Positions 13,070-57,572 of a stretch of DNA of 64,000 nucleotides are shown here, in pieces. Below the pieces are notes generated by a model that saw only the letters and a list, made by a program, of their open reading frames with translations, did no database searches and was not told the origin of the DNA. A program made the translations under genes and the position numbers. Position 1 is the stretch's first letter; each line of letters opens with the position of its first letter. Source of the stretch: Rhypophila decipiens (taxonomy: Eukaryota; Ascomycota; Sordariomycetes; Sordariales; Naviculisporaceae); assembly GCA_033297075.1 (NCBI GenBank), contig MU858109.1, forward strand, positions 62,001 through 126,000. The letters are read 5' to 3'.

Positions 13070-13185
13070 ATACCTTGACCAAGATCGAGTAGGTGCCCTA
13101 ACTATCTGGACCAGGCGCCTTCACTTGCGAGATTAAATGCCTTGATCAGCGGGAATAAATGCCCTTACTGGCTGGAATAGATGGT
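13055..13185 (+). repeat. Minisatellite locus 2 (degenerate 21-22 bp unit)
   Basis: About six degenerate units. The clearest are GCGGGAATAAATGCCCTTAC and TGGCTGGAATAGATGGTGAA. The period is 21-22 bp and the orientation is opposite to locus 1. The last unit overlaps the 3' end of the F-box gene, so its final codons and stop appear to be repeat-derived. Confidence 0.7.
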
Positions 13186-38949: not shown

Positions 38950-40377
38950 CTAGATCGAGTCCATTCTCTTGCAGATGAGCTTGCCACCCTTGTGGATGAG
39001 ATAACGCAGTCCCTCCGCTTCAAACTTGATGTTTACATCCCCAGGCAGTTCCCACTTCTTGTGAGATGTTGTCACAGCGGCGTGAGTGTTTGATTCCTTA
39101 CTGGCAGTCTCCATAGCCTCGTCTTCCTGACCGGGAGCTGCCTCTTCCTCGGGCGAATACGCAAAGCGGTCCAGAATAGGACCGTGGTCCATACGACCAG
39201 TAATTGTTAAGCCCAGGTCCTTCAGACTGGGAATCTGCGCCTGGATACCGTCCAGAATCTGGTCAAGGAGCTGTTGGCCAAACAGGTTCAGACAGCATCT
39301 TGGTGTTGAGCACTGATGGGAGATAGGCGTCGTTGCCGTGCTCGACTCTCCAGGCTCACCAATGACTTCCGAAGCTGTGGACCCGCCTTCGGTATCGTCC
39401 TGAATCATGTTCATGTTTTCAGCTCCTTCCAAATCGGCATGCTGAATTTGCTGGAGGAATAGGTGATCGTTCTGATCGGTGAAATTCAACTCCAGTGTTC
39501 GAATGTGGCTCGCAAATGGGTGCGGGTGAAGCACAAAGAACCGGTGGGCATCCTTGGATGAGGTGAAGATGGGAGTGATGTTTTCGAAGCAGGATGCGAT
39601 GGTCTCCCAGTACCTGTTAAAAACTCAACAGTTAGTCTCTATGCGATCCAAATAGAGATTAACTCAAACTCACATCTTCTTGCAAGTCAGAAACATGGGC
39701 AAGAATGGACTCCGCTCAACCTCGGTGACGCTCCCCGTGTCTGGATTCCAGCGCTTCATGAGGGCGCTCTGGCACTTCCAGTGCCTGTTCCAGTGCTGGC
39801 GCATCACCCACGCCCGCCAGAGCCACATGGGCGGATGATTTCCCTCTTGGTACATCCACGGCTGGATGCTCAATCGATTCTGATCACCTTGGTCAGGTGG
39901 AGCATCATGAACCCGGCAAAGAGTGTGGCCAAGTTTGGTGCCGCCCGTGCCATCCGTGTATATGTGGAGCCCGAGATCCGTGCTGAACAATGACGGAGCG
40001 ATCACCGGCGGCTGTGCGGTGGATACCACGGGCACCGAGGACGATGAGGTCCTGGGCATAGGCATGGGGATCTGACGACATGAGGACTCGAGATACCCTC
40101 TCCAGACTTCGCGGTAAATGAGACGCCTAATTTCCAGCGGCAGGCGAGCGAAAAAGAGGCAAATGAACTGGTTATCGGCCGACGTCACCATCTCGCGTTG
40201 GGTGATCAGGGCCTGCCTGTCGCTGTTGTCCTGGTCTCGCCTGAGACCAGCATGATGCACAATGGATGAGATTGGGGTGCAGTCGCCTTCCTTTTCTTTT
40301 CCTTTGTCCTTGGCCGTCTTCTTGTCCTTGCTCTGTCCCAGTCCGACCAGACGCAGAGCAAGCTTCTTGAGTTCCAT
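38950..40377 (-). CDS. DUF7730-type (F-box-like) protein
   Basis: Exons 39674-40377 and 38950-39613 give 455 residues. The 60-nt intron has a GTGAGT donor, a GACTAAC branch point and a TAACAG acceptor. After a Lys-rich N-terminus (KDKKTAKDKGKEKEG), residues about 78-100 read FFARLPLEIRRLIYREVW, the LPxEIRxxIY start of the DUF7730 domain common in filamentous ascomycetes. A long Ser/Pro linker, LGLHIY and the tail LPMFLTCKKMYWETIA follow. The intron falls inside this conserved CKKxYWE motif, which supports the splice. The function of the family is unknown; it is often described as F-box-like. The second half is acidic and low complexity, with a final basic end. Confidence 0.75.
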
Positions 40378-41261
40378 TTGAGGTGCTGGCCGGCGATGCC
40401 AGTTGCCGACGGTGACGTGTGTGGGCTAATGCAAGCAAAAATGGGCGAAGGGAACGGCGGCGCTCCCGACTATGTGGACGCACCGGCGGCCGACTGAATC
40501 GGGTCGCGGAATGGGGTGATGTTAAATGAGGGAAACGAATGGGTCGAGCATCCGACGAAAATGAGATTTTGGGTTTGCTGGAATGCCGAGGCGCCTCAGT
40601 GCCTGCCTGCCGCCAGGCAGTGACAGTTGTGTGGCAGGGAAAGGGCTGACTGGGACTGGGAAACAGTCAGCTTCCAGGTTCGCAACTGAAAGGAGTCCTG
40701 GCCAGCGGTCCTGGCTGCCTCCATTTGAAAGAGGGCCCCTGTCGGCAATGTCGGGAATGAAGCAGTTCGGTTTCAGAACCGCGCTTGTGGCGTCCAATAA
40801 TGCCAAGAGCGCGGCAAGTTCCACTGATTCCCGGGGCGGCTCGGCTCCAACGCTTGGCGTGGGGTCGAAATCAGCCCTAAATTACAGGGGGTTTATGAGT
40901 GGTGCCTCCTGGTTTAGTGAGAATGAAAACAAGACGACAAAACAGAAACCGGTGTTTTGTCATTTTTATGGGGTAGGAGACTGGCCTGTTTGGTTCTTGC
41001 TAACCAAAAATACACCCATCTCTACTAACGGACATTTTGTCTGAGTGACATGTAAAAAGATGAAACGCCAAATGATAATACAAAATGATGACAGTACATT
41101 AATATTAATACAACACAAACACACCAATAGTTATACACCAAAAAGAAACAATAATCCAACACCAAACGGCTGCCACAGAAACGACGACAGACGTCAAAAC
41201 AACCAAGAGATGCTGTTCCGAGCACAGAGAAGAAAAGTCCAACCACCACAAAACTCGCAAG
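40378..41261. other. Intergenic
   Basis: The first half is the GC-rich promoter of the DUF7730 gene; from about 41.03 kb the DNA becomes very A/T-rich. No gene recognised. Confidence 0.4.
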
Positions 41262-41953
41262 CTAGTAGTATCGGGCACGGCAGCGTTCATCATTATATCC
41301 AGCTCGCTTTCCGCAACAAGACCAGACGTGTTGATACTCCACCTCGGGGATGGCATCACCACCGTGAATGCGACCACAAACGGTGACCTCTATGGACGTG
41401 ATATTGCCTACAAGGGAAAGAAACATGCATGTTAGTAATGGAAGGAAAAGAAAAAGAAAAGGATATACCACTAACCGCGATGCTCCGGGCTGGGTGATCT
41501 CAGTGGCGGCTGCTCAACAACCGCGGGTCGGCTTTCCCTCAGCTCTGAGCCAAGCGACGGGACAGGGTGCGCAGTGGCAGAAACCGGAACGGCAATGGGC
41601 AACGCGGGGGACGGAGCACGAATGATTTGGCCCCTCTCATCCGTGGGATGAACCACAGGCCTCTGGTAAGTACTCCGAGGCCTGGGTCGTTCCGGATCGA
41701 TCTCATCCCAGCCTCTGTCGCCCGAAGGCTCCCAGTAGGGGTTTTCGACCCCACAAGGAGGATTGGTCTCCCAATCTCTTCTTTTCTCCTTCTCTTCCCT
41801 GTCCCGACGATAACGGGCCTTGGCCTCGGCCCGCCCAGCGGCACACGATCGGTCAACCTTGGATCTCAATGGCCTTCTCCAGCAGGATGCCTCCGTATGG
41901 CCTACCTCACCACAACGAGAGCATGTGAAGCTGGGAGGGAACCCGTCTGCCAT
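41262..41953 (-). CDS. CCHC zinc-knuckle protein, short paralogue with WSxCG...C module
   Basis: Exons 41476-41953 and 41262-41407, 207 residues, ATG 41953. The 68-nt intron has a GTTAGT donor, an ACTAAC branch point and a TTGTAG acceptor. One zinc knuckle, C11-x2-C14-x4-H19-x4-C24 (CSRCGEVGHTEASC), opens the protein. A basic/acidic and Pro-rich middle follows (AKARYRRDREEKEKRRDWE, RPRPRSTYQRP). The C-terminal exon carries VCGRIHGGD and QHVWSCCG...YNDERC, alignable with the ends of the two larger CCHC proteins in this window. The intron splits a glycine codon after its first base, as in both paralogues. CCHC knuckles bind single-stranded nucleic acid; the role here is unknown. Confidence 0.75.
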
Positions 41954-43696
41954 ATTTCAGATTCGAAGGCCTATCACACATTTGATCATGTTAGCTACCG
42001 ATAAACTTTTATTTCGGAAACACGCAAAGGAGTGGTACGGAATCAAAACGAAGAGAACTTACAAGACCAAGAAATGCAAGCTACCAACAAGCAATACCGG
42101 GAAGCGCAGACTAACGGGCGAAGAGAATAAGGCGCAAAAAACACCGAGAGAAGAGGTCGAGAATCGTTGAGAGTTTAAGCTATACCCCCTATAAAGTGTC
42201 AACAAACGAATACCGTAGATGCTGAAGTGTTTGAACAATGAATCAAGACAATGAGAAGCCTTTCCAGACTTTGAAATGAGTCTCAGCCGATCACTTACTT
42301 TGTTTTCCACGACGAGGCGGGATACGAGAGCTGTGCGCGTGACAGAAGACAAGGCAGAGGGTATGGGTAAATCTAAGTCGCCATTACCTGCCAGCCTGTA
42401 CCGAGCAATGAACTTCAAAGGGAAAACAGAACAGAAAAGACGTATAGACGGAAAGTAACGAGCAGACTAATCAATCACCAGGGTATCGAACCCTTCGGGT
42501 ACAAGTAGTTGGATGATACTGAGGATCTGGCCAGAGCTTGCCTGGGGACGAGACGTCAAGGGCGATACTTACTGTTTGCGCTGGGCTTCTGGTGGTGGAA
42601 AGGAAAAGGACGAGTTCAGAATGAGATCTCGTAGACCATAAACACCAGACTGGGGGGGAGACGCGCAGGACAGAGGGGTAGCTCTTCGTGCAGCACTCAG
42701 GAGCTTTGGCCACAGAGCTCCCTGTATTGAACTGCTATGGACGATGGTATTTTCGTTACAATTACACGTGGTACACGACGAGAGGTTTGAAAGAAGAGAT
42801 GGAAACAAATCAAGGCGATGGAGGTTAAATGATTGAACAGCAGTCAGGCTACGAAGGGCAACGGGATTGGAAACCGACCATCACAACTGGGGAGCAGTTA
42901 CCCATAACCCTCATGACACCGTAGATACAAACAAAACAAGCTCTGAGAATGCAGTTCGATTGCCCCAAAACATTGAGACAACTTGTTGAATATGTTATGC
43001 CAAGCCAGTATCGTACGTAGATCAGTCACTTTGTCCCGGCCATATGAGGCAAGAGTCAGCGAACGGCACAAGAAGTACCGCAAAGATAAAATAGGGCATC
43101 GCGTTGCTGAACAAACTACCGTGCCACCCGTGAATCGAACCATCATGGTGGTTTTCGCCAACGATCTTTCCGGCAGCACTGGCAGACCTTGAGCCACTCA
43201 AGCTGAGTGAGATGGTACCTACCTGTTTTGCTTGCTGATTCTTGGCCCGTTTTCCTCGACGTCAGCTCCAGTCTGCTCTGTTCAAAGTTTCGGTCTTGAC
43301 CCAAGCCGTGTCACGGGTGACGGCTACTCGGGCAATCACTTTCAAAGCTCGAACAACCCACTGCCGTAGCAAACCGAAGCCCAGAGCCTCTTTGGTGGTT
43401 CTTGCAGTATACTCGCGTGATGTTTCTGTCAGAGGATGCCGAAGTCAGCTTGTTCTGCTGGACTAAAAAAGTCCCGACGCAGAGCCACTTGTGAGGTGAA
43501 ATTAGAGATAAAGCAGTTGGAACGGGGCTGATGTCCATTTTCGATGTCTTGGGATGGCGTTATCCGCCAGGTGTCGAAAAGAAAAAGAAAAAGGAGGGGA
43601 GGGGGGGGATTGGGAAAGGAAAATCATGTGTAAGAAAAGAGAAAAAGAAAAGAAAAGAGAAAAAGAAAAGAAAAGAGACCATAGAAAATATTCGCT
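41954..43696. other. Intergenic, repeat-like, no gene recognised
   Basis: About 1.7 kb upstream of the short CCHC gene. It has no sustained coding region. The right end (43576-43680) is a purine-rich GAAAAG microsatellite with a G run. A T-arm-like GGTTCGATACC occurs on the minus strand near 42483, but without a matching D arm. Confidence 0.4.
43576..43680 (+). repeat. Purine-rich (GAAAAG)n microsatellite with G run
   Basis: An almost pure A/G strand: GAAAAAGAAAAAGG, then a GGGGAGGGGGGG run, then repeated AAAAGAGAAAAAGAAAAG units up to 43680. It lies directly downstream (minus strand) of the tRNA-like element, so its T-rich complement would provide multiple Pol III stops. Confidence 0.8.
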
Positions 43697-43697
43697 T

Positions 43698-43867
43698 TTG
43701 CACCTCGGATTCGAACCAAGGAGCTGAAACACCCAGGGGAAACGCTCCTCGAAAACGTACTTGCTCTTCGAAAATATGGTGCCATAAGGCCGGGTTGAAG
43801 TGAGAGCTTTCTTCTTTCATTGCGGTCAGCCTTTCGGTGCCCGTGTTACCAACTACACCATGCAGCC
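43698..43867 (-). ncRNA. tRNA-derived Pol III-type element, copy 1
   Basis: Read on the minus strand, GGCTGCATGGTGTAGTTGG begins a tRNA-like 5' half: a D arm with GTGT/ACAC pairing and an A-box-like TGGTGTAGTTGG. The 3' part has a perfect B box, GGTTCGAATCC, in a T arm (CTTGG/CCGAG), then GTGCA able to pair with the start. About 100 nt lie between the arms instead of a normal anticodon arm; this core is shared with copy 2 at 47330 (AACCCGGCCTTATGGCAC; GCTC...GAGC pairing). Downstream are TTTT runs, and upstream TATAAAA (43887-43893). It could be a SINE-like element, a structured RNA gene, or a tRNA with a large insertion. No amino-acid identity can be given. Confidence 0.6.
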
Positions 43868-45362
43868 ATGAAATTTTACTGGTCTGTTTTATATTGAGAT
43901 TGGAATTCTTCCTGGCTTTCCTGATTATATAACGGGTGCCGGGAGGGGTACGACTGAAGAGGCCGAGGGATGACATTTCGTCTGAAGTTTTCAAGGGAGA
44001 TGCTCTTTCTTTTGTCTGGTTCAATCTGACAAACAGAAAGATCCACAACGGTTATTATATTTACACGTGATTAATTCGTTTTTTCCGCGTTTGTTGTTGA
44101 AATGGTTTTGGGCACCCCATCCGTCGCTGCACACCTGCAATTCGCTGAGCATGCGGAAATGCACTGGGACTTGCCTCCTATCTTCCGCCAGCATCAGCTA
44201 GAAAGATGATGAACGTAGTATTTGTTCTGCTATAGCTGGTCGGATGCGGATCGAGCCCATCGCCGGTGTGAAAGATTGAGGCCGTTCCTTTTGGACAAGC
44301 TATGAGGTTCTAAAATGTTCGCTCATGACTCTTAGCAGCAGACCTTTTGTGGAGCCGCCACCAAATTTCGACATCTGCACACTCTCTAAGAGAAGTCCGG
44401 GCTGAGGATCTTCTTCGTCAGGCACAGAGCAGTGTACATGGACATTGCAGCCTCTAGCTCAGCTCTGAAAGTCGATATTTGGCGTACTCGGGTGACAGAG
44501 ATTGTGACAGTGCTGGTTATGTCTGCATTGCTTCTATATGTTCCTCTAACTTCAACTTCTAACGCTTTGCGTCTTTCTCTTTTACACGTACTTTTAGTCT
44601 TCTCCGTCGGGCATCTCGCAGAATAAGAAAGGGGCATAATTAGGTAGGAAAGAAACGGCCCATTCTATTCATTGGATCGGCATACGGGATATGCGCCAGA
44701 GCCGGTCCCGCACATACTTGCCGTGTTTTCTACATTGGATTCTCACCGAGCCCTGAAATCATGCATGCGTGGACCTGCGTGCAGCCTATGGTGCCTCAAG
44801 CTGGAGGGGGTGTGTGTGTCTGTGTGCCTCAGCCGAAGTGGTGTGGCATCCTGTATTTGCAAGCGCACCAGTCAATTTACAGCATGCCGCCCAGTGAATG
44901 GTTCACCGATTCCACACTCCTGCAGCAACTGCTTGGACTATTCTCCTGCCACCCACGGACCCACATGCGACAGCCACCCTCCAACCCTCCATTGAACCCT
45001 TAGCTGCCTGTTTGGTGCACCGGCCGGTATTTCCTGTCGGGGTCTCTGCCCACCTTACGGGTGCGTACCTGGCCGTTTGTGGGGAGCAGCAAGCGTTCAT
45101 ATAAGCATAAATAGGACCCTTAGAGCCCCACATACTGTGTTACATCCATGGAATTCAGTTATATAGGAATTCAGCGATTGCAGCCGTCTTCCAGGATCCT
45201 GGATAACCCTCCCGTCCCTTGTCCCATTGTTGTTTCCAGCAGCCAGGTTCTGCGTTTTGTCCTCACCATTTCCGCTTGCTGTTGCAACCTGGCGCTTCCA
45301 AGCCCCAGTTCGATCTTTGCTTGAAGTTCTCAACGGTGAGGGCATCGCGGAAAAGGAAAACA
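43868..45362. other. Intergenic, no gene recognised
   Basis: About 1.5 kb. The last 250 bp is the leader region of the PTH11-like receptor gene. A short (GT)n run lies near 44811. Nothing else recognised. Confidence 0.4.
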
Positions 45363-46944
45363 ATGTCCGGGACTGCCCTGTCCGCCGAAGACATCGCCAA
45401 GCTTCCCCATGACGACCGCGGCCCGGCTATCCTAGTCTCGCATTGGATCCTAACAGCAGCCGCGACTTTATTCCTTGGCCTTCGAGTCTACTGCAAGAGG
45501 TCGACGAGCCGGCAATTATGGTGGGATGACTGGATCCTGATAGCTTCCTGGGTGCGATATCCTGCAAGTCCTGCCCCTTATTGGCCTGTGCCAAAGACTA
45601 ACTTGGACCCCAAAACAGTTGACGATAATCGCGACCGACATCCTGACAACAATCCTAGTCTTCGAGTTCAAGCTCGGGAAACATAGCTGGGACCTGGAAG
45701 TGTCGCCCGTTAACTTTGCCAAATTCATCATCCTGCTGAGCGCGCGCGCGAGCTTCACCCTGACAGCACTGGGGTGGACCAAGACCGCCTTTGCCATAAC
45801 ACTCCTGCGATTGACGGAGGGGATCACAAGGACGTTTGTCTGGTTCATCATTATCTCATTGAATGTCACGACCATCATCAGCGGGCTTGTCCCCTGGATC
45901 CAGTGCAGCCCGCTTGAGAAGACGTGGGATCCCATGACGCGGGAGGGACAGTGTTGGGCCCCCAAGGTTGGAACCAAGATTTGGATTGGAATGGGAGGTA
46001 CGTCTCCGTTTCCGAGGGCAAGCTCTTGCTTTTCTGAACACTGACCGACATGATCCCATTCTGACAGCCTACTCGGCCTTGATGGACTTTACTCTCGCTA
46101 TCCTACCATGGACATTCTTATACCACCTGTCACTGAGAAAAAAGGAAAAGCTTGGTATCCTGGTGGCGATGAGCATGGGTGTCATGTAAGCATGGAGCTT
46201 GAACCCGAGCCCCCGACACTCCGCACAGGAAGCTGATGGCATTTTCATCATTATAGCGCAGGAGGAGTAGCGATAGCCAAGTACGTCCATCTGAGGGTCC
46301 ACGTCTCCTTGATCCACCTCATCTGTGTGATACGCTTAGCTTGCTGATTCCCGGGTCCATGAATGCAGATGCGCGAAACTCCCCCAGCTCGGGTCTGGAG
46401 ACTCATGTACGTTACTCCAATTTTCTCCCAGGGACAGAACCCAAGATTTTCACAGCTGACACAAACACGCGCAGACAACGAGGTTGAACTCTACATCTGG
46501 GATATTACCGAATCCAGCGTGACCATGATGGCCGCGTGCATCCCGACCCTGCGAGTCCTCCTCCAAGCAAAGACGAAATCCGATCTACGAGGCTCAGGCT
46601 CGGGTACTACTTCGGGCGACACATCCCAGACATACAGCTTGTCTCCGGTATCACGTCCTCGATTTCCTCCCTCAGCTCACATACGCTCCGAGACAGACTA
46701 TGACCAGAGAGCCGCGGGCTTTATGCTCACGAGCACCTACGAGTCGAGTAGTTCCAAAGCAACGCCCGTCTTCAACACAATGGCCAGGACTCGAAAATTC
46801 TCAAGACATGGAAACGGAAATGACGAAGAGCAACAAGAGCATATGGACAACTACTTTGACCTCCATCCGTCGCCGCAGAGAACAGGGAGCTCAGAGCCGG
46901 TATTGGCTGGGATGCGGACGAGGTATGAGTATCCTTCCAACTAG
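45363..46944 (+). CDS. PTH11-like seven-transmembrane receptor (fungal rhodopsin-domain family)
   Basis: Six exons: 45363-45551, 45619-45997, 46068-46185, 46257-46280, 46369-46406, 46475-46944; 405 residues in one frame. Exon 4 has only 24 nt. Donors are GTGCGA, GTACGT, GTAAGC, GTACGT and GTACGT. Family marks: RVYCKRSTSRQLWWDDW after the first helix, KTAFAITLLRLTEG, SLNVTTIISGLVPWIQCSPLEKTWDP, Cys-Trp before WIGMG, YSALMDFTLAILPW, then YNEVELYIWDITESSVTMMAACIPTLR in the last helix. A long Ser-rich cytosolic tail follows. Such receptors sit in the plasma membrane; some sense surface or host cues. The N-terminus lacks a CFEM domain. The ligand is unknown. Confidence 0.85.
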
Positions 46945-47329
46945 CTGGCCGAGAAGTGTAAGCATCACTCACACCTTTATTTCTGATTCGCCACATTATC
47001 ACGTCAAGCAAATCCCATACTGACCGGATCAATACCTCTGTTGTAATTAGCGTAAGCTCATATTATTCGCTCAGATAGTCAGATTCAGTATCTCAGAACA
47101 AAAACAAGCTTCAACCTAAACGGAAAACGGTAGCTCCACCAGAGGTCCCACTGCAGCCTTGTGTTCCCAATTACTATAACGACACTTAATTTAAGAGCAG
47201 ACCAAATCTACTCCGCCGCCCAGTCCCAGCTATTTTAAGACAGCAGTCTAAGGTAGTCATATATTCTCTAATGCCAAATAAAAGGCAAACACAAAAAAGA
47301 AAAATCGGGCCAAGAAACGAAATAACCAC
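46945..47329. other. Intergenic
   Basis: 3' flank of the receptor gene and A/T-rich DNA that would form the T-rich 3' side of the minus-strand tRNA-like element. Confidence 0.4.
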
Positions 47330-47501
47330 TGCTGCACCCTGGATTCGAACTAGGGGGTTGAAACACCCAAACACGGAGCGCCCTTACCGTAATTGCTCTC
47401 CGAGAAATAAGTGCCATAAGGCCGGGTTGAAAGTGGGAGCTTTCCAGAATTCAGGGGTACCCGCGAGGCGGTGCCCGTGTTGCCAATTACACCATGTGGC
47501 C
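47330..47501 (-). ncRNA. tRNA-derived Pol III-type element, copy 2
   Basis: The second copy, in the same orientation, about 3.6 kb from copy 1. On the minus strand: GCCACATGGTGTAATTGGC (A box and D arm), the shared core (GGGCACCG; AACCCGGCCTTATGGCAC; GAGAGCAA; GGGTGTTTCA), then AGTTCGAATCC and GTGCAGC. Taken together the copies suggest an ancestral acceptor stem GCTGCAT/GTGCAGC: copy 1 keeps the 5' half and copy 2 the 3' half. Runs of five and six T follow (47300-47304, 47293-47298 on the complement), and TATATAAT lies upstream (47545-47552). Sequence outside the element is unrelated to copy 1. Confidence 0.6.
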
Positions 47502-48003
47502 GTGGAAATTCTGATTCAGGGCGATAGATTGACCCTTGTGCGTCATTATATACTCAGTTTGTGCGTGTGGGTAGGTGGCTGCCTGGTCTGGGGACGTCAA
47601 ATTTCGTCACAAGATTCAGTGTTGAGATGACAATTGAATATTTCCAGGCCAGCTCACCAGCGGCGATGGATCCACAAATTTTACACGGACTGATCTTGAC
47701 AACTGTAGGGAGCACTCGCCGCTGGATTTCTTACAGTGGCTAGAATAGATGTCTTCAGTAACGGGGATGGATGCTTAACTGGCAAGAATAAATGCTGTGA
47801 CTGTGCTGGAGTGATATCCCTCAACTGCCAGTGTCTAGAATAGTTTGCTCATAATAATTCAATTCAAAGGACGGCGCACTGGGTATCGATCACTGATGCT
47901 CGGGTAGTTCCATTATTTGGGGAGCATGACCAGAAAGGTCATGTACTGCCAACCGTAGCCAAAACAACCAAAGCTGCCCAGAACGGACTATCCAGATAAC
48001 CGC
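47502..48003. other. Intergenic with minisatellite
   Basis: Upstream region of the tRNA-like element, then minisatellite locus 3, then 3' flank of the next gene. Confidence 0.4.
47727..47845 (+). repeat. Minisatellite locus 3 (degenerate 21-22 bp unit)
   Basis: About five units, for example GTGGCTAGAATAGATGTCTT and CTGGCAAGAATAAATGCTGT, spaced 21-23 bp, same orientation as loci 2 and 4. It lies between the tRNA-like element and the 3' end of the gene at 48004. Confidence 0.65.
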
Positions 48004-48789
48004 CTAGCCCTTGTTCATGTTGGCATATGCGTCGATCAAGGTGGCGGAGGAGGACGAGCCTGAGGATCCATCTCCGACCTCGGGCTCCCGCTTTCCCTCA
48101 CCAGAAGGTGGAACCTCTTCCTTCACGAGCACCCAGCCCATTCCATCAAACTCGTCGGCCTGTCCTCTCTTGCTTTGGGCCCCATCGGCAGGCTCATAAC
48201 CAGGTTGGAAGCTCCTCCGGCCGCGAAAGACCAATACATTGCCAGGTCCAAGCTGATAATGGTTGTCTCCCTGATTCAAGCTGTATTCTCCGCCGTCGTC
48301 GAATATCTGAAATTCCCACCCAGTGGTGTCCAGCCCATGCTCGACGAGGGCGTCCCCGGACAGGTAATCTTGCAGTCGATCCCGGTCGATTGTGATAGTG
48401 GCGACTCCGTTGTGGTCATGAGTCAGCGGGGCTGTTTCGGTGCCATGGCCCAGGCAGAGCGTGTCCCCGAAACCGTAGATGCTGGTCTGTGGTCTGTTGC
48501 AGCCCCCGCTGTAGGTCAGGTTGCGGGGGACGTCGTTGTCGGGGTGGCAGTCGGGCATTCGGATGCCGGCGACAATGATCTCGCTGATGCCGTTTGTGGT
48601 CGCTTGAGGGAGGAAGATGTGCTTCTTGGGGAGGACAGGCAAGACGTCGTCCTCGTCTTCGTCCTCACTGCCGCTGGTGCTGGGCGATGGGTCCTTGTAG
48701 GTGGCGGGCCACTTTTGTCGGTTGATTATTTTGATTCTGGGCCGTTTATGGATGGTTGTAGGGTTATTAAATGAGGGAGGAGGTGTCAT
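48004..48789 (-). CDS. Hypothetical protein with acidic N-terminal linker
   Basis: Single exon, 261 residues from the ATG at 48789 (the upstream frame begins only at GTG). The N-terminus is basic (HKRPRIKIINRQKW), then a Ser/Asp/Glu stretch (GSEDEDEDD). A central globular-looking part has a Cys-containing segment MPDCHPDNDVPRNLTYSGGC and GFGDTLCLGHG. A strand-rich end follows (WEFQIFDDGGEY, QLGPGNVLVFRGRRSF, GMGWVLVKEEVPP) and a Ser-rich tail. No signal peptide and no family recognised. Coding character is supported by length and uniform codon use. Downstream lies a minisatellite. Confidence 0.6.
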   Translation of the reverse strand: MTPPPSFNNPTTIHKRPRIKIINRQKWPATYKDPSPSTSGSEDEDEDDVLPVLPKKHIFLPQATTNGISEIIVAGIRMPDCHPDNDVPRNLTYSGGCNRPQTSIYGFGDTLCLGHGTETAPLTHDHNGVATITIDRDRLQDYLSGDALVEHGLDTTGWEFQIFDDGGEYSLNQGDNHYQLGPGNVLVFRGRRSFQPGYEPADGAQSKRGQADEFDGMGWVLVKEEVPPSGEGKREPEVGDGSSGSSSSATLIDAYANMNKG

Positions 48790-51249
48790 GGTGCTGGTTG
48801 GTAGCAGCCTCGCAGCCACGAGCCGAGGTCTTGGAATTTCTTTATTTGGAATTGGTCAGCTAGTCAAGCCATATCATCTGGTACAGGGGGACCGAATGAT
48901 CGATTCTGCTAATGGGTCGACGGGTGGAAATTGAGAGCAACCTACCGAGATTGTCAGGCTCGCCAGTAATTTAATGTCAAAGACACCTAGATAATGCTGC
49001 AATAATACCCAAATCATGTCTTTTTGAAATCAAGAATAATGTTTAGTGGCTGCCGAGTAAATGAAAGCTCTGAATAGTGCTGGACCTACGAAAAAGCAAA
49101 TGACTGCTCACTGCGGTTGTTGCGAACGCGAAGGTGTGTGCAAGGACAGAAATTTGGCAAAGGAGGGGCAAGGACAAAGTGTTGTTTGGATCAAACGGTA
49201 GCTGTGGTGACGTGGGAAAGGCCTGGGGGCTTCGGTGGTTTTCCGGCATTAGCAACAATGCTTAAACTGCCAATGATCTTTTCGATCAAATTTCCAAGGA
49301 TAATTATCACCGCCAAGAAAGACAAAGCTCATGATTCATTGTACCATGCAGTCAATGGTTTGTCTTTTGTCTTGTTGAATTCTGGCGTCAGTGCTGGCGG
49401 AACATGTCTTCTACCCCCTTTTTTTCTTTTACTTCTGCCCGACAGAAACTTCGCACTGATATCACGACCCTCACTTAAACTTTTAGGTGGAGGATGGATG
49501 GTTGGACCAAGGGTATATGAGTGGTGGATGGAATATGCAAAATAACGAGGTGGACAATCGAAACTAAGGATGACGAGGAACCACTGCAAAGCAATGTTAG
49601 GCTTAACAAACAACGACATTATTCTTCATGGCGTAGTATGTGTTCAAACGTATCCTGTGCCGCCATTTTGTGATGTCCGGCGCAAAGAGGGAATGAAAGC
49701 ATGAAGAGAGAACCGGGGGTCTTGAAATTTCCGCTCAACGAGGGGCACGCCATAATCCATCCTCCTAGATAGTAAACAGCGGCAAAGTCTTCCGGGTCCG
49801 GATATAGCCACAAAAGATGAGAATGTTACATTACAAGGGGTGCCAGTCACACCACAGTGCCCAGAGGTATCGATATTTGACGATTATCCTCTTGGATACT
49901 ACGGTAGTTGGAAGTACAATGTCGAGTTCAAGATCATTCGGGGCCGTACGGGATGTTCAGATCAGATCCAGGCCGTACTAAGGTGGTCCCTCGAGTTACA
50001 AAGACTCGTTGAGGGAATGTATCAAACGTGGCTCCAGCATTCGCACATACTTTTCACCTAGCCAGGTAGGTTGAGCGCTCATACAGCATTACTTGATGTA
50101 ACAACGTCCTCGCTCACTTCATGATTTTAGCTCAAGACGGACCCAAGTGTTTCCGTAGACTTATTTATACGCATATTTGATGAACGTTTGTTCGAGCCCT
50201 AAATGGTGGTCTAGACATTGTATCATCATATCCAAAAACACAGCCAGTCTGATCAGTTGAAGGCCATTGACACTTCGCGTGATTCCACGACGTCACCAAG
50301 TTGGGACACCGGGCATTGCGAGGCGAGGTACAGCCTGAGAGCAAGAAAGAAAATTCCGCATCATGAAACACACTACCGATCGACCCAAACTGGAGTAACC
50401 GATGGCTTGCAAACAACCGGCTATCAGGACAGGACACGAGAGCAACCACAGTCGCCACAACGACAACTGGGCTAGATAAGATGTCAGCCGTGGGGCTTTG
50501 CATGGGCGCTCGAGAACCACGCATCACCGTTCACATATACCAGCACCAATCTTCTCATACGTCGACACGGCTCTTATAAGGCCAGGGATATACGGTCGGT
50601 TTGACTTTCAGTCGTGTTTTAGTGGATGACCTGAATGGCCTGAATATATTCCCTCACTAGCTTGAAGAGATGCTTTAAATGGCTGGAATAGAAGCTTTGA
50701 TTGTCCAGAGTCAATGCTTTACTGGCTGGAGTAGATGCGCTGACTGGGCGAGAAGACCGCTTTGGGCCGGTGCCTGTATATAATGTAAGGCCGGTTTTCA
50801 TAACAACGCCAGCGGCGATGGCTTCGGTTTTGACCAGTTGAGAATGCAAGGGCAGATAGACAAAAAACAAGAGCAAGGTGAAAAAGGAAATTGTTTGCCC
50901 CAAAATATTAAGATAACAACTAGTACCTAGTCGTCTACACTACTCAAACACCCATACCATACATCACTCAACACTCTCCTAATCGTACAACCCAACGTTA
51001 AACCCAACAACACCCAGGGGTATCAAAGCATAGAATATCCCACACTCCAGTACTCCTCAACAATAACAGTTCAAGGCGCGCGGCCGGAACATGCACCAGC
51101 TCCAAGAACGCCGTCGCCTTGTCAAACAAACGATTGAGCCATCCAACTCATTCTCTCATCTTTTGGACCAGTTGTCCTTATCGCATCGACAAGTCCGTCA
51201 TCGCTACTAGTAGCCTCTCCCCAGTTGATGAGGCCCAACCGCATAAGCC
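48790..51249. other. Intergenic, 2.4 kb, repeat-containing
   Basis: No convincing gene; open frames are short or start without ATG. Minisatellite locus 4 lies at about 50655-50765. The rest is unassigned. Confidence 0.45.
50655..50765 (+). repeat. Minisatellite locus 4 (degenerate 21-22 bp unit)
   Basis: About five units such as ATGGCTGGAATAGAAGCTTT and CTGGCTGGAGTAGATGCGCT, spaced 21-22 bp, same orientation as loci 2 and 3. It lies about 500 bp beyond the 3' end of the CCHC gene at 51250-52262. Confidence 0.65.
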
Positions 51250-52262
51250 TTAGGCGTCCAGCCACCATTTATATGGCTTTCCCTTGCCACAGAAGTCGTT
51301 CAGTCCGTCGTGCGATACAATCTGACCGCAACGACTCCAGATATACACTTGGCATTGGATCACGATCGGCAAGCCCTCTTTCTTGTCGAAACGAGTGAGC
51401 TCAGGCTTGTGGGGCATACCTGTACGCAGTTCCACAAGGTATTAGCACGTAAGAGCATTTCATGGGTGGTGGGAGAAAGGGGGGATCGCGGCAAAGATAC
51501 GCAAGTTGAAAAAGGAGGAAGGAAGTACGAACCCGGGGGATCTACAGGTATTCTTGTGCCACTCTTGGGGAGCTTGCCCTGTTCTCCCTCTCCGTTTCCA
51601 GCGACGTCCTGAACGGGTTCCTTGGAAGGCTTGTCATCGTCTTCTTTCTCTTGCTTTTCAGCATCATCCTCGGCGGCTTTATTGGCCGTCATTTCGTTGT
51701 GCGTGTCTTTGGTGAGATCGCCTTCTCTCTTCTTGCTGCCCTGCGGACCGGAAGCACGCTTCGCTACTGGGAATGAAGCGACAGGGGCGGGCCTCTTTGA
51801 AGGTCCATTCAGGGAGAGACCGGCTCCAGCAGCGGGAGCTGAACTGGCTACAACAGCAGCTGGGCCAGAGTAAGAGGTAGCCTGTGGAGCAGAGACAGTG
51901 CTGGTGGTATCTCTAGATTCAGCGACACCCGCCGAATAAACTCTGTCGCACTCAGCAGCAGCATCCAGGATGATCTGTCGCGCTGTGTCGGAGTTCTGCC
52001 CAACGGCTCGAAGTGTCTCAGCTACACCAGCTATATCCAGACGCCGGAAAAGGGTAAGAATGGCTCGGTTGGTCGGATCTGTGTCTGAACATCGACCATG
52101 GCGGTGACTTGGGCTGCCACAACACCGACAGACAAACTTGTTGCTGGGACAATCTCTCGTAATATGTCCAGGCCTTCCGCAACAATAGCAGTGCAGGTCC
52201 AGACTGGGTCCGTTGCCACCTTCACCAGGGGTACGGCCCACGGAGGAGGTTTTGCGGGACAT
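51250..52262 (-). CDS. Double CCHC zinc-knuckle protein with WSxCG...C module (paralogue)
   Basis: Exons 51533-52262 and 51250-51419, 299 residues, ATG 52262 (the upstream open frame starts at TTG). Intron 51420-51532 (113 nt), donor GTTCGT, acceptor TACAG, splits a glycine codon after base 1. Two zinc knuckles, C25-x2-C28-x4-H33-x4-C38 and C45-x2-C48-x4-H53-x4-C58, are followed by DTDPTNRAI and a helical segment ending ECDRVY. An Ala/Ser/Pro linker with KRPAPVASFP and an E/K-rich region lead to the C-terminal module (C266, IWSRCGQ with C274, NDFCGKGKPYKWW with C287). Knuckle spacing, linker motif, module and intron match the gene at 56498. Probably a nucleic-acid-binding protein; no retroelement gag or pol domain is attached. 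Confidence 0.8.
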
Positions 52263-53900
52263 TCTACTCGCTTCGAGTGCTGGGCAACTGTAACGCGTCG
52301 CTTCTAATAAATAGGTTCGGGGATAATCAGCAACAGGAAAGCTCGTCAAACGGAGAAAAGCACCGGGTCATTACCTTGTGTCCCTGAGGGTGAGTGAGGT
52401 TGAAAGTCGGATTGTCAGGGTGATGCTACTCTGGATCGGCGCAGTTCCGGACTGTTGACGGAGTGGAATGGAGTTTTTGGAGGGGACAGAAATCTCAAGA
52501 GGGGGGGATTTTGTAGTCGACGACTCATTGAGGGGTAGCAGAAGGCCTGTGAGCTGCTTGGTGAGCGCGGTCTGTGCTTGAATGTCGTCGATCCCAAGTC
52601 TTGGCGAATGACAGCCCGCCGCCCGGTGATGAGTGAAGAAGGCTTCAACATGTGCCCAGGGTTCCGAAGAAGCCAAGCCAAGTCAATTCGAGCCCACTTT
52701 TGGCTTAGATTGAACTAATATAGGCCAAATTAACTTGAGAAATAGTTCAATTCAATTGAATTGATATACTTGAAATACTTAAATAGCTGGGAAAATGGTA
52801 GAAAATGAAGTTATTCCTAGTTTTAAGGGGGTAAGATTAGTACAGGGTTAGGGTTCTATATAAGGCCTCTACTAGTTCAAGTATTCCAAGTAGTCCAAGT
52901 CAAGTAGTATGACTAGATTGAATTGGCTTAACAGTATTTTCGGCCTCTTTAGATTAGATTGTTTTCAGTTGATTTGCCTTAGCTTTCATAAAGTTGGCTT
53001 GTTCGGAACCCTGCATGTGCCAGCCTCTGGTGAGATGAAACTGCAGAGCAGAACCATCCAGTCAACGCAGAACTCTTGACATGGAGTACGTCATTGTCAC
53101 AATCACCAAGTACGAAGGTTCAACGCGCCAACGAATATTGTAGTATTGTACTGAAAAAGTAAGACGAAGAAGAAAGGAAGGAAAAGATCAATCCAGCGAT
53201 CGCGGCCGTGGGGTAAATGGCCAACTGTTGGCTGTGCAGCCCCACTTTCCGATAAGCCGATAAGCCCCACCTTGTTGGATTACTGACTTGCTGGCTTGCG
53301 GGCTGCCAGCTGGCTGCAGGTGCCAGGCGAATCTCGTGACAGTCATAAACAATATAATGCGCGCAAAACGAACTCTCGTCACAGTTTCTCCCCGCGAATA
53401 ACTGACCAAATCTAACGCGTGACATCACGCCCAGGGATGAAATCTTTGGACGGGGGAACGGTTCCTTTCCGCCGCAATCCACCCACAGCGGTCGGCGACG
53501 TTGATAAAATACGAGACTCGGAGTGACCTTCACCTGTTATGTGTTCTGTAGATGTGATACAACTTTCCACATCATTCCCGGGCCCATGCCTCATCACTAG
53601 TGTATCTAGCCGTTCGTTCTTGCTTATCACTGCAAGGCAAAATGGAATCTGAGTAAATTAAGGATTGAGAATAAATGTCGATGCGCGCGTTGGTGGGTGG
53701 GTTCGAGTTATGGGTCGTTTGAGTCGTTTGATCTTATACGTCTTAGATGAATTTTTTGTTCCTGTGACACTTTAGCTTAGGATATCCAATCTCAAGATCG
53801 GACTTTACGGATAGCCTATGAATATTATCCAATTATTCAGATCGGTGCTTTATTACGAGGGAGAATGGCCATTGAGATCACAAAAACAATTCAGAAAGCC
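52263..53900. other. A/T-rich intergenic region with telobox
   Basis: The first 400 bp is the promoter of the CCHC gene. From about 52.68 kb the DNA is A/T-rich, with a 16-bp palindrome at 52748-52763 (CAATTCAA/TTGAATTG), a telobox (AGGGTTAGGGTT, 52844-52855) followed by TATATAAGG, and scattered AGTTCAAG/AAGTAGT motifs like those upstream of the HNH gene. No gene recognised. Confidence 0.45.
52844..52863 (+). promoter_or_regulatory. Telobox followed by TATA-like motif
   Basis: AGGGTTAGGGTT at 52844-52855 is followed directly by CTATATAAGG. The layout parallels the telobox and TATA box at 219-301, but no gene follows on the plus strand within 1.9 kb. Confidence 0.4.
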
Positions 53901-53904
53901 TGGC

Positions 53905-54003
53905 CGCGTGTATGGTGTAATTGGTTAAGCACAGGACTTCGCGCAGCGGTTTTTATGTCACTGTGATTTCTCTCGAGAGGCTCAAGTTCAACTCCTAGCA
54001 CAA
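53905..54003 (+). ncRNA. tRNA-like sequence, probably degenerate
   Basis: TATGGTGTAATTGGTTAAGC forms an A box and a D arm (GTGT/GCAC). About 60 nt later AGTTCAACTCC is a B-box-like T arm, followed by TAGCAC. The T stem has mismatches and I could not pair a normal anticodon stem, so it is more likely a tRNA relic or a tRNA-headed repeat than a working tRNA. The D arm resembles those of the two Pol III-type elements at 43.7 and 47.4 kb, but the core does not. Confidence 0.4.
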
Positions 54004-54050
54004 GTCGGTTAAATGAAATTTCTAGCACAAGTCGGTTAAATGAAATTTCA
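53995..54050 (+). repeat. Tandem duplication of 27 bp at the 3' end of the tRNA-like sequence
   Basis: The unit CTAGCACAAGTCGGTTAAAT followed by GAAATTT is present twice in direct tandem from about 53995 to 54050. The first copy begins inside the tRNA-like 3' end, so the duplication includes the element's tail. Confidence 0.7.
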
Positions 54051-54836
54051 AATAAAACCTAAGGCCTGGAGGAGACTTGAGAACTCTACGTAGGAAGAAG
54101 GTTTTCGACAGTCGCGATGTTCAGGTTTAAAAACTCAAAAAGCTAAGCTAGAAGAATTGGTTTTTAAGAGCTTTTTTTTTTCTTTTTCCTCTACATTTAG
54201 AGGTTTCATATATACACCTACTTTTTTATACGTATACGACAAGGCTAAACTTCTAAGTACCTAGTAGCTTATCTTAAAACACCTACTCTTTCCATGTAAA
54301 AAAATAAATGTATTAATTCGAAGAGTATTCTACTCAGTGGATAACGACACGTTGAATTGACAGCGACATATTGAATCGACAGTGATGCGTTTAATTGACG
54401 GCGATGTGTTCGATTCACAGCGATGAGATGCAGATGGTCGGGGCACGAAGAAAGGCCTTTCCTTGGTTGACTGCATGAACATTGGGGAGGACATCGCTTA
54501 GAACATCAAAACATCCGCTGCCTAACAGCACTGCAACACGAGCTTCTCAGCCAAATACCATTTTGCAACCTCGCCACGACGGTTCCATTGCGAATACGAA
54601 CTTCTTTGCTTCCCCCGCCCCTTATCTCGGCCGAGATCAAGCGTGGTGGAACACACTAACCGTTCTTATACTTAGTACTGCCGTGTCATGCCTGCTAGCA
54701 CCATGCTTATTCCAACTTCATTGTATTTTCCCCCACCTCCCCGAACTGAACTTACGCCATCTTCTTTCTGATAATCCTGTCCTCTCTCCCTCGTCTATGA
54801 TCATCGAGTCTTCTCACACCGTGAAGAAAGACAAGA
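54051..54836. other. Intergenic, A/T-rich then promoter
   Basis: 54.1-54.3 kb is A/T-rich. At about 54350-54425 a degenerate tandem of GACAGYGAYRYRTT-like units occurs (TTGAATTGACAGCGACATA, TTGAATCGACAGTGATGCG, TTTAATTGACGGCGATGTG, about 22 bp). The last 350 bp is the promoter and leader of the hydrolase gene. Confidence 0.45.
54350..54428 (+). repeat. Short tandem repeat, about 22-bp unit
   Basis: Three to four degenerate units of type GTTGAATTGACAGCGACATA spaced 22-23 bp. The unit is unrelated in sequence to the GGCTGGAATAAATGC minisatellite family, although the period is nearly the same. Confidence 0.6.
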
Positions 54837-55836
54837 ATGGCTGCGAAAACCACCATCCACGTCCCTCACCTTGGGGGAATTGACGTTGGCTATCGTCTCT
54901 CCTCGCCGTTCGACCCTTCCAAACCAACGCTCGTACTGGTCAACTCGATGTGCACCACCTCTTCCCTTTATGACCTCCAGTTTTCTTCCGCCAGACTCAC
55001 CCAAGCCGTCAATCTCCTCGCCATCGAGCCCCTTGGCCATGGAGCCACTGCGCTCTCCTCGGGGTCTCCTAAATCAGACGAGGGCCATGGGCCAGACCGA
55101 CATTTTACCTACTGGGATTCGGCAACCATGTCTCTCCAGGTCATGGAGGCCTTGTCCATCTCAGCTGCCTTCTGCTTGGGTACGTCCCAAGGCGGCTGGA
55201 TCGTGATGCGGATGGCTTTGCTCGCGCCGGATCGGGTTCTTGGCGTCCTTCCACTGGGGACGTCGATGGACTGTGAGTCTGCGGATTCTCGGGAAAAGGG
55301 GTGCTGGGATCCGCAGACGAGTCTGAGACCGTTCTTGGAGGCATGGACATCCGATACCGCAACACCGGACTTTGCGGTCAGCGAGGTCTGGTGTGGAATG
55401 GTTGCATCCCTTGGGTTCGGTGACAGTGTTGGCTCGGAGACAATTGAGTTCTGGAAGAAGACCGTGAAGGATGTGTATTTCGGTGATGCCGGGAGGATGA
55501 AATTGAGGATGGCCTTGATTTGTTTGCTAGAACGAGACGGTTTGTTGTTCAGAGTCGGGGATGTTCGATGTCCTGTTTATTGGCTCCAGGTTAGTAATCT
55601 CTTCACAGAACGAGGTGCATATTCCCTGACTGACTGGTCGCGTCGTGCAGGGCGATCAAGACCCAGTGTTTGGAACGATCGTGCCGGAGGAACAAATCAA
55701 GCTGTTTACGTCTTCTGTGGAGGCCAGGCTCGATTTTGTCAAGGGCGGAGGGCACTATTTGAATGCGACAAGGCCAGTTGAGGTCGAGGAGGCTGTGCTA
55801 GAGATGGTGTCAAAATATGCCCTCGGGTCAGGTTAG
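54837..55836 (+). CDS. Alpha/beta hydrolase
   Basis: Exons 54837-55589 and 55651-55836, 312 residues. The 61-nt intron has a GTTAGT donor, a CTGAC branch point and a GTGCAG acceptor. The nucleophile elbow is CLGTSQGGW with Ser117. The spliced second exon supplies the acid in WLQGDQDPVFG (Asp255) and the histidine in KGGGHYLNAT (His286), completing the triad; without the splice both would be missing, which supports the intron. EPLGHGAT near 65-71 matches the usual strand-4 loop. By family it is an esterase- or epoxide-hydrolase-like cytosolic enzyme; the substrate is unknown. It is not a close relative of the hydrolase at 28208. Confidence 0.85.
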
Positions 55837-56497
55837 GCAGAGTGTAAGCACCCGACGAGTTGATTGGTTACCAGGTAAGGTAAAACAACAATATGATCGC
55901 CGTGCAGTACCGACCAAATGCCAGAATAATCGATTGCACAGTGATATTAAAACCGTGCTAAATATTCCACTAGACACGGCCAAGCATTTCGAATGCGAGC
56001 ATTGGTTTGTTTGACCTCCTAATAAAGGACTGAAATATCCAAGAATAAAGCTCGGCTCCAACTCCCTCCACCGCAGCATCCTGTCATGCTGTGATTGGTC
56101 AGGCGTGACGAACCACGACCCCCGCAGCGCGCACAAATCACCTGCACGGGGGCAGCTCAGGGGTCATTTGCTCACCGTTCAGAATTGAGGACCAAAACCT
56201 TTCTTCTCTATCAACTGTTGCCAATTAAGGTGCTTTGCTGATCACTGTTGCGCTCGACTAAGAACACACACACTTGTCCGTTGATTCAAGCGGTTCAAGT
56301 TCGGCAGCCGGCTCTCTCTAAGCTGCATCTTCCACCGTTCCGCATTGTTGACCTCTCTGAATCCTGGCACGTTCAGCATCGTCCCGACGTTCGTCTCTCG
56401 AAAAGCAGCGTGAGTCCAGGAACTGCATCTACTGAGTCTCTTCTGCAGTGAACCTCGGCTGACACCATCCTCACCCCAGCCCCAAGTCATCCCGAGA
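55837..56497. other. Intergenic, promoter of a CCHC gene
   Basis: About 660 bp. The second half is the leader region of the zinc-knuckle gene. No other feature recognised. Confidence 0.4.
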
Positions 56498-57572
56498 ATG
56501 CAGCCCTCGAGCACTTCTTCCTCAAACTCTCGTGTCCAGGACGGCCGCCCCAGTCGCAATCCTATTTGCCAACGCTGCGGAAAATCCGGACATGAGAAGC
56601 AGAAGTGTCCCAACAATCAACCTGTTTTCTGTCTTTGTTGTGGCAGCCCCACGCACATCACGTCCAAATGTCCCGATACCGATCCGACAAACCTCGCTAT
56701 CCGTACCATTGCTCTCCGCTCCGGCTACATAGGTCTGACAGAGAACCTTCGAGCGATTGCCAAGAACCCGGAGGGGGCTGAAAAGCGGCTCCAAGAGACT
56801 GCCGCCGAGTATGACAGATTCTATCGGGAGGGCGCGGTTCAATCAGCAGGTACCACCGTCATGGCGAATGCCACTGGCAATACTACAGATGCCACTGCTC
56901 AACTTGAGAGGGGTCCCTCGAACGCTCGCCCTTCTGTTACCACTACCAGTACACCTGCCGCCGCCGTGGCTGCTGTTCCAGCTCTCAACGTGCCAACCAA
57001 GCGCCCGGCTCCTGTTGCTGCAACTCCTCCTGATGCCAAGCGCCCTGCACGCTCTTCTACTGTTTCTTCCAAAGTCACAGTCCGTCAAATAATTGAAGAG
57101 CCCGTCAATAAGCATGTTGATAAGATCGTCAATAAGCCTGTCGAGAAGCATAATGGCAAGCTTGAAGAGAAGGCTCCTGGAAACCTCTTCGGGGGCAACG
57201 GCCAAGGCAAGAAGAATGAAAGCGAAAGGCAGACGGAGAAGCAGAAGGAGAACAAGACACCCAAGATTCAGGCGGTCCATCACAAAGGTTTGCTATATTT
57301 CCATTTTCTTTTCCTTTCTTGTCTTTGCCCATGCTTCCCTTTCCTTGGCGCTTCTTCCAACGTGTTGCTAATTTCTTTTGTAAAACCCAAACACAGGCTA
57401 CTCTCACAAACCCGAGAGAACCTTCTTTCGCAAAATGGATCGTTGTCCTGTTTCTGTGCAATGCCCCCGATTTATTTGGAGCTGTTGCGGCCAGCTCGTG
57501 CCCGCGGACGGAGAGAACGACTTTTGCGGGAAGGGGGAGGTCTACGAATGGTGGCTGCTTGTCGACGTTTAG
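56498..57572 (+). CDS. Double CCHC zinc-knuckle protein with WSxCG...C module (paralogue)
   Basis: Exons 56498-57287 and 57397-57572, 321 residues. Intron 57288-57396 (109 nt) has a weak GTTTGC donor and an ACACAG acceptor and splits a glycine codon after base 1, exactly as in the gene at 51250. Knuckles: C24-x2-C27-x4-H32-x4-C37 and C45-x2-C48-x4-H53-x4-C58. Then come DTDPTNLAIRT, a helix ending EYDRFY, an Ala/Thr/Pro linker with KRPAPVAATP, and a Lys/Glu-rich part with VNKHVDKIVNKPVEKH repeats. The spliced end has C286, FIWSCCGQ (C293/C294) and NDFCGKGEVYEWW (C307). Reading through the donor instead gives a hydrophobic, unconserved tail, so the spliced form is preferred. It probably binds nucleic acid; function unknown. 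Confidence 0.8.

What the first reader, a model, noticed from the sequence alone, without database searches (positions are those of the whole stretch)
41262..57572. Three CCHC zinc-knuckle paralogues sharing a C-terminal WSxCG...C module and the same split-glycine intron
Genes at 41262-41953, 51250-52262 and 56498-57572 have N-terminal CCHC knuckles. The two larger ones have identical positions for the second knuckle (C45, C48, H53, C58), and both carry DTDPTN and KRPAPVA motifs. All three end in a small exon with W-S-x-C-G ... N-D-x(1,2)-C, and in all three the only intron splits a glycine codon after its first base just before this exon. Shared intron position and phase shows common descent. 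The combination of single-strand nucleic-acid-binding knuckles with an unnamed Cys module is not a family I know. Inference: a lineage-specific expanding family of RNA- or DNA-binding proteins, possibly domesticated from a mobile element.
Basis: partly seen in the sequence, partly recalled or inferred. Interest (0 to 1): 0.75.

Follow-up and report, generated by a model that had tools for sequence, protein, structure and literature searches.

The report
Genus-restricted fungal zinc-knuckle gene family
A dung fungus carries three related, intact genes for small proteins with zinc knuckles of the nucleic-acid-binding kind at one end and an undescribed cysteine module at the other; relatives were found only in the same genus, so this looks like a fast-changing lineage-specific family rather than a new kind of system.

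Summary
In detail: the genes, CCHC knuckles, last exon with WSxCG...C, and phase-1 glycine intron are as described. Two of three models equal deposited Rhypophila decipiens proteins letter for letter. g2 and g3 are clear paralogues; their last exon is 57% identical and constrained (pN 0.28, pS 0.80). g1 is linked mainly through its last exon and through P0003, a Rhypophila sp. protein joining a g2-type front to a g1-type end. Four decayed pieces lie elsewhere in the genome. Three searches of 5.8 billion proteins returned only Rhypophila, at limited sensitivity. No family in Pfam, NCBIfam, PHROGs or solved structures explains the C-terminal module. In g1 and P0003 it has H-x15-CC-x10-C, recalling a CHORD zinc lobe, but sequence similarity to CHORD is not significant. 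A mobile-element origin found no support. Most likely: RNA/ssDNA-binding adaptor proteins with a C-terminal docking module, in birth-and-death evolution. The function is inferred only.

The parts
41476..41953 (-). g1 exon 1: one CCHC knuckle (residues 11-24), Pro/Arg-rich middle, ends in ...EHRG
   Evidence: protein identical to P0004 = QBC37DRAFT_374073
41408..41475 (-). g1 intron, 68 nt, phase 1 in Gly, GTTAGT...TACTAAC...TAG
   Evidence: same junction in deposited model P0004
41262..41407 (-). g1 last exon (type B module, GNITS...HGGD...VWSCCG...NDERC) with stop
   Evidence: 43% identical to the end of P0003
51533..52262 (-). g2 exon 1: two CCHC knuckles (25-38, 45-58), DTDPTN, probable helical stretch, KRPAPVA, charged linker
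   Evidence: P0001 is 96% identical over 82% of g2
51420..51532 (-). g2 intron, 113 nt, phase 1 in Gly, GTTCGT...CTAAT...CAG
   Evidence: the model of P0001 does not use it
51250..51419 (-). g2 last exon (type A module, HKPE...IQC...WSRCG...GLNDFCGKG..YKWW) with stop
56498..57287 (+). g3 exon 1: two CCHC knuckles (24-37, 45-58), DTDPTN, probable helical stretch, KRPAPVA, Lys/Glu-rich linker, ends in HHKG
   Evidence: protein identical to P0002 = QBC37DRAFT_388033
57288..57396 (+). g3 intron, 109 nt, phase 1 in Gly, GTTTGC...CTAAT...CAG
   Evidence: same junction in deposited model P0002
57397..57572 (+). g3 last exon (type A module, HKPE...VQC...WSCCG...GENDFCGKG..YEWW) with stop

Best explanation
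The three genes are members of a small family, found only in Rhypophila (Sordariales), that duplicates and decays. Each protein has one or two N-terminal CCHC zinc knuckles, in g2 and g3 separated by 6-7 residues and followed by a conserved, probably helical stretch, then a long low-complexity charged linker, then a separate exon coding a small Cys/His module. Most likely the knuckles hold single-stranded RNA or DNA, the helices make a dimer, and the C-terminal module is a small zinc-bound docking surface for a partner protein. Shown: gene structure, common descent of g2 and g3, coding constraint, restriction to the genus at the sensitivity used, decayed copies. Inferred: zinc binding, nucleic-acid binding, dimerisation and docking.
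For: Exact gene models and shared phase-1 Gly intron; two models identical to deposited proteins; g2/g3 constraint: pN 0.28 vs pS 0.80 (saturated) in the module and 0.34 vs 0.61 in the N-terminal part, pN>=pS in 0 of 1000 bootstraps for each; the best solved-structure match of g3 is a retroviral nucleocapsid over the two knuckles (2ec7, E 6.6e-4); P0003 and P0001 pass Pfam's zf-CCHC cut-off (27.4 and 21.2 vs 20.8 bits); g1 and P0003 share H-x15-CC-x10-C exactly, while W188 and C170 of g1 are not kept in P0003; only Rhypophila proteins in 3 of 3 searches; four decayed pieces on C67, C83, C95 and C100.
Against: None of the three window proteins reaches Pfam's zf-CCHC cut-off (g1 14.8 and g2 18.9 vs 20.8 bits; g3 lists only zf-CCHC_4, below cut-off). 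Structure models are of very low confidence (mean pLDDT 43.0 and 39.4), so fold and zinc ligands are unsupported. g2 lacks the first Cys of the CC pair, so types A and B cannot use the same ligand set. The link of g1 and P0003 to g2 and g3 is modest: local alignment scores reached by shuffles, g1-g3 1, g1-g2 30, P0003-g3 50, P0003-g2 643 of 2000; global 3, 8, 77 and 222; profile comparison aligns 15 columns at probability 59.6, E 8.9e-5. P0001's deposited model omits the module.
Confidence: 0.5

Rival explanations
1. Domesticated Gag or LINE ORF1: the knuckles come from a retroelement nucleocapsid-like protein taken over by the host.
For: CCHC knuckles are typical of Gag and of fungal LINE ORF1 (recalled); the best solved-structure match of g3 is a retroviral nucleocapsid; pieces are scattered over contigs.
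Against: Knuckles start at residue 11-25 with no capsid part before them; in a Gag-like ORF of this genome (C376; my reading, not a profile hit; cut by the contig end) about 250 residues precede the knuckle. None of 14 scored reverse-transcriptase matches is on C65. g1 and g3 have no other DNA match in the genome, g2 four partial ones. Viral-contig scans: 117 and 22 pattern matches, none confirmed.
Confidence: 0.08
2. g1 is not a paralogue: an unrelated CCHC protein whose last exon resembles the others by convergence on a small Cys motif.
For: g1 exon 1 shares little more than the common knuckle with g2 and g3; similarity of its module to g2 is weak (30 of 2000 local shuffles reach it) and hhalign aligns 15 columns.
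Against: Same intron phase and Gly position; g1-g3 module score reached by 1 of 2000 local and 3 of 2000 global shuffles, joint test 6 (local) and 2 (global) of 2000; P0003 carries a g2-type front (68% over residues 1-41, 61% over 56-148) with a g1-type module (43% over 177-220); g1 and g3 end exon 1 in H-x-G, and P0003 and P0001 have H-x-G at the aligned place; all three genes lie within 16.3 kb.
Confidence: 0.2
3. The C-terminal module is a diverged CHORD or Btk-type zinc lobe, so that the family is a knuckle protein that captured such a lobe.
For: g1 and P0003: H-x15-CC-x10-C, with HGG at the His and, in g1, WSCC. Rar1 CHORDII C-lobe binds zinc by His181, Cys196, Cys197 and Cys213, i.e. H-x14-CC-x15-C (PMC2935968, passages). 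Fungal Rex3 carries a single CHORD (PMC12129344, passages).
Against: No CHORD or Btk hit for the three modules, P0003 or P0001 in Pfam at E<=10. The genome-wide CHORD search gave 4 matches, none in the window. Local alignment to the second CHORD of the genome's own CHORD gene (C184) is not better than shuffles: reached by g1 476, P0003 620, g2 1498, g3 1307 of 3000; to the half of the first CHORD: g1 42, g3 190, P0003 1083, g2 1331 of 3000, but globally g1 480. g2 lacks CC.
Confidence: 0.15
4. Transient orphan genes with little function, drifting towards loss, as the four decayed copies suggest.
For: No g1 relative other than itself among 204 candidates (the search also missed the known relative P0003); four decayed pieces against three intact genes; P0003's model lacks the second knuckle.
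Against: pN well below pS over 149 aligned codons of g2 and g3, pN>=pS in 0 of 1000 bootstraps; intact frames and canonical introns in all three.
Confidence: 0.15

Closest known systems
CCHC zinc-knuckle proteins (zf-CCHC, PF00098), e.g. retroviral nucleocapsid
   Same: CX2CX4HX4C knuckles, two in tandem with a 6-7 residue linker in g2 and g3; nucleocapsid 2ec7 is the best solved-structure match for g3
   Different: Knuckles stand at the N-terminus; no capsid part; extra helical stretch and C-terminal Cys module
Two-knuckle gene on C30 of the same genome (branchpoint-binding-protein-like; name recalled from its architecture, not from a call)
   Same: Best knuckle match in the genome outside the family (42% over residues 17-61 of g3, E 7.1e-5)
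   Different: For g3 the similarity stops after the knuckles; no KH match in g1-g3; no WSxCG module in the C30 ORF printed
CHORD zinc domain (Rar1, Rex3/REXO1; PF04968)
   Same: Order and near spacing of a His, a CC pair and a Cys in the g1/P0003 module
   Different: No significant sequence match; N-lobe absent; g2 lacks the CC pair
Rhypophila proteins V8F06_007633 (P0001) and V8F33_005911 (P0003)
   Same: Members of the same family
   Different: P0001's model lacks the C-terminal module; P0003's has one knuckle and a type B module on a g2-type front

Membership tests
CCHC zinc knuckle (zf-CCHC) | CX2CX4HX4C spacing | tested here: met
   g1 one, g2 two, g3 two exact matches
CCHC zinc knuckle (zf-CCHC) | Pfam score over the curated cut-off (20.8 bits) | tested here: inconclusive
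   P0003 27.4 and P0001 21.2 pass; g2 18.9 and g1 14.8 fail, g3 not listed for PF00098
CCHC zinc knuckle (zf-CCHC) | binds zinc and single-stranded nucleic acid | not testable with these tools
   needs protein
CHORD domain (PF04968) | profile match | tested here: not met
   no hit at E<=10 for the modules, P0003 or P0001; genome-wide search finds C184 (three matches) and a weak C169 match
CHORD domain (PF04968) | two zinc sites with six Cys and two His (from PMC2935968) | tested here: not met
   g1's module has 4 Cys and 2 His and no N-lobe; g2's has 3 Cys
Btk-type zinc finger | H...CC...C single zinc site (recalled) | tested here: inconclusive
   order met in g1 and P0003, not in g2; no Pfam hit
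Gag-like retroelement protein | capsid part upstream of the knuckles, linked pol, multiple copies | tested here: not met
   knuckles at residue 11-25; no scored RVT_1 match on C65; no full second copy at DNA level
One family g1+g2+g3 | homologous last exon behind the same phase-1 Gly intron | tested here: met
   intron exact in 3 of 3; g2-g3 57%; g1 by shuffle tests and P0003, modest
One family g1+g2+g3 | homologous exon 1 | tested here: inconclusive
   met for g2, g3, P0001, P0003; g1 shares the knuckle and an H-x-G exon end, with a weak 25.4-bit alignment to g3

The most novel reading that the evidence does not exclude
The phase-1 glycine intron is a swap point: one knuckle-bearing front exon is paired in different genes and species with either of two last-exon types (A in g2/g3, B in g1/P0003), so that the same nucleic-acid-binding front is given different docking modules by exon exchange, in a fast-evolving set of genes. 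P0003 is the swapped combination, and the decayed C67 locus holds a type B module 250 bp from a g2-type exon 1 piece, on the opposite strand.
Probability: 0.15. Interest if true: 0.5.

Novelty: new variant of a known kind. Interest (0 to 1): 0.3.

Why it matters
If true, it adds a small taxonomically restricted family with an undescribed C-terminal Cys/His module and a case of gene birth, decay and possible last-exon swapping in a Sordariales genus with several sequenced species, and it argues against the mobile-element reading. It does not by itself settle a long-standing question; the function is unknown.

Tried and rejected
Structure prediction of the module (A5, 3 sequences) and of g3 (A6, 5 sequences) gave mean pLDDT 43.0 and 39.4; I made no fold search, since one with such models would mean nothing. 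Solved-structure searches with the module profiles gave no credible match (A2: 6 sequences, best E 0.37; A4: none). Near-hits below any cut-off were set aside: for g1's module zf-HIT (E 0.062) and a rubredoxin-like domain (0.06); PHROGs for P0004 (0.09, 0.21) and P0003 (0.085, a nuclease family over its charged linker and end), eight NCBIfam models for P0003 (best 0.099) (these two libraries are made for prokaryotes and their viruses, and g2 was not scanned against them). RIP as the cause of decay: C>T plus G>A from g2 to relic against the reverse are 5:1 (C100), 3:3 (C95), 5:5 (C83), 1:2 (C67), no clear bias. Relation to the C30 gene beyond the knuckles: not seen for g3; for g2 the alignment runs on at 26% over 133 columns (E 3.9e-7 unfiltered), through low-complexity sequence, and I give it no weight. 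Literature: searches (2 papers; 17, 15 listed; 0; 4; 33, 8 listed; 2,496, 8 listed) showed no description of this family; I saw listings only, except passages of PMC12734299, PMC12129344 and PMC2935968. The 4 papers holding WSCCG are by title and abstract start not relevant.

The protein search collects candidates by shared 5-residue words, so distant relatives can be missed: the module search had a single candidate, g3 itself (it did not even return a g2 relative), and the g1 search did not return P0003. Absence outside Rhypophila is only as strong as that.

Full report
Where it is. The window lies at C65:62001-126000 of a 45.7 Mb, 408-contig genome. Rhypophila belongs to Naviculisporaceae, Sordariales. 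PMC12734299 (outline and passages) names R. decipiens PSN293, sequenced at JGI, as the previously published genome and lists 47.1 beside it, probably its size in Mb, slightly more than here; it also describes Rhypophila sp. PSN637 and a strain CBS 256.69 moved from R. decipiens to R. myriaspora. That this window is PSN293 and that V8F06 is CBS 256.69 are inferences.

The genes. g1 (minus strand, 41262-41953), g2 (minus, 51250-52262) and g3 (plus, 56498-57572) each have one intron, of 68, 113 and 109 nt, phase 1 within a glycine codon, with GT...AG ends and a single CTAAC or CTAAT site. g1 has one CX2CX4HX4C knuckle, g2 and g3 two, the second at residues 45-58 in both. Among 525 ORFs of at least 60 aa in the window, 5 of 5 knuckle matches belong to these genes; in six frames 3 of 3 WSxCG pentapeptides are in their last exons.

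Coding evidence. Between g2 and g3 the last exon (56 codons) has pN 0.28 and pS 0.80 (synonymous sites saturated), with 18, 14 and 34 differences at codon positions 1, 2 and 3; the N-terminal part (93 codons) has pN 0.34 and pS 0.61. pN reached pS in 0 of 1000 bootstraps for each. So both exons look translated in this frame and constrained. Against: P0001, 96% identical over 82% of g2, is annotated to run on into the intron and then to end in WCMFRPRALNCYC, whose coding sequence lies in the window about 150 nt beyond g2's stop; that model seems to skip the module. It may be a prediction error, a strain difference or an alternative transcript; the DNA of that strain was not seen.

Family relations. 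g2 and g3: 40% over residues 16-241 of g3 and 56-57% over the last exon. g1 joins through its last exon: the local alignment with g3 was equalled by 1 of 2000 shuffles, with g2 by 30; global 3 and 8 of 2000. P0003's module is not significant against g2 (643 local, 222 global of 2000) and weak against g3 (50 and 77). Joint tests: 6 (local) and 2 (global) of 2000. Profile comparison of the A and B pairs aligned 15 columns, probability 59.6, E 8.9e-5. The bridge is P0003 of Rhypophila sp. PSN 637: residues 1-41 and 56-148 match g2 at 68% and 61%, residues 177-220 match g1's last exon at 43%. g1 and g3 end exon 1 in H-x-G; P0003 and P0001 have H-x-G at the aligned place, g2 has not. There are thus two forms of the last exon: A (g2, g3; HKPE...QC...WSxCG...NDFCGKG..Y.WW) and B (g1, P0003; GNI..E.TV.GR.HGGD...SCCG...C).

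Copies elsewhere in the genome. A-type module pieces lie on C95 (DNA 85% over 78 nt, truncated; protein E 1.4e-7) and C83 (DNA 73% over 104 nt, E 8.0e-8, with a stop and frame changes; protein E only 0.016). A B-type piece on C67 (75% to P0003 over 28 residues, E 9.7e-5; with g1's module only E 0.077) lies 250 bp from a g2-type exon 1 piece on the other strand (87% over 54 nt). An exon 1 piece is on C100 (89% over 166 nt, open for 94 codons). The remaining matches are other knuckle genes (C30, C3) or have E-values of 0.003 or worse. So the family multiplies and decays.

Distribution. Three database searches: g2 returned 3 proteins of 2217 candidates, all Rhypophila; the g3 module 1 of 1 candidate, itself; g1 1 of 204, itself. 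Two viral-contig scans confirmed nothing (117 and 22 pattern matches). The protein search needs shared exact words and missed P0003 from g1, so distant relatives are not excluded.

What it is not. No curated family covers the C-terminal module (Pfam for all three genes, P0001 and P0003; NCBIfam and PHROGs for g1, g3, P0001 and P0003; the near-hits are below cut-off or have E-values of 0.06 or worse for that part). A mobile-element origin found no support. CHORD membership fails, though in g1 and P0003 the order and spacing H-x15-CC-x10-C recalls the C-lobe of Rar1 CHORDII, H-x14-CC-x15-C (PMC2935968, passages), and a single CHORD is described in fungal Rex3 (PMC12129344, passages).

How it most likely works (inference). 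Knuckles bind single-stranded RNA or DNA; the conserved stretch after them (TDPTN...AAE.DR.Y), predicted helical at low confidence (residues 63-118 of g3), may dimerise; a disordered charged linker leads to a small metal-stabilised docking module. The least secure step is the last: type A and type B cannot share one set of ligands, since g2 has Arg in place of the first Cys of the CC pair; in type A the conserved candidates are His of HKPE, Cys of QC, the Cys before G in WSxCG and Cys of NDFC.

Verdict. A real, small gene family, so far confined to one genus, with an undescribed last-exon module; a new variant of a known kind, of modest interest. The boldest reading that remains open is exchange of the last exon at the shared intron.

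Noticed in passing
43686-43876 and 47320-47510 (minus strand): Two copies, 73% identical over 198 aligned columns, of a sequence with A-box-like (TGGTGTAGTTGG in the first) and B-box-like (GGTTCGAATCC in the first) motifs about 130 nt apart and T-rich stretches after them (motif names recalled, seen by eye); perhaps a pair of Pol III-type RNA genes or tRNA-derived elements. ARAGORN at default settings called no tRNA and Rfam no family.
   Followed up: partly
50626-50783: Short stretch with 70-75% matches at 10 other places (10 of the 11 matches of window 42000-51200 outside itself, a lower bound), probably a dispersed repeat; the eleventh is 50257-50432, 90% identical to C54.
   Followed up: no
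10743-12305 (+) and 13165-14928 (-): Two neighbouring large ORFs with F-box matches just below the cut-off.
   Followed up: no
39670-40425 (-): ORF with a DUF7730 match below the cut-off (24 vs 27 bits), near g1.
   Followed up: no
6163-6305 and L036 (C83) 4706-4835: A 72% similar stretch lies close beside the decayed module on C83, so that relic seems a patchwork of two sources.
   Followed up: partly
L042 and L043 (C184:51548-52222): A gene with one full and one intron-split CHORD is present in this fungus.
   Followed up: no
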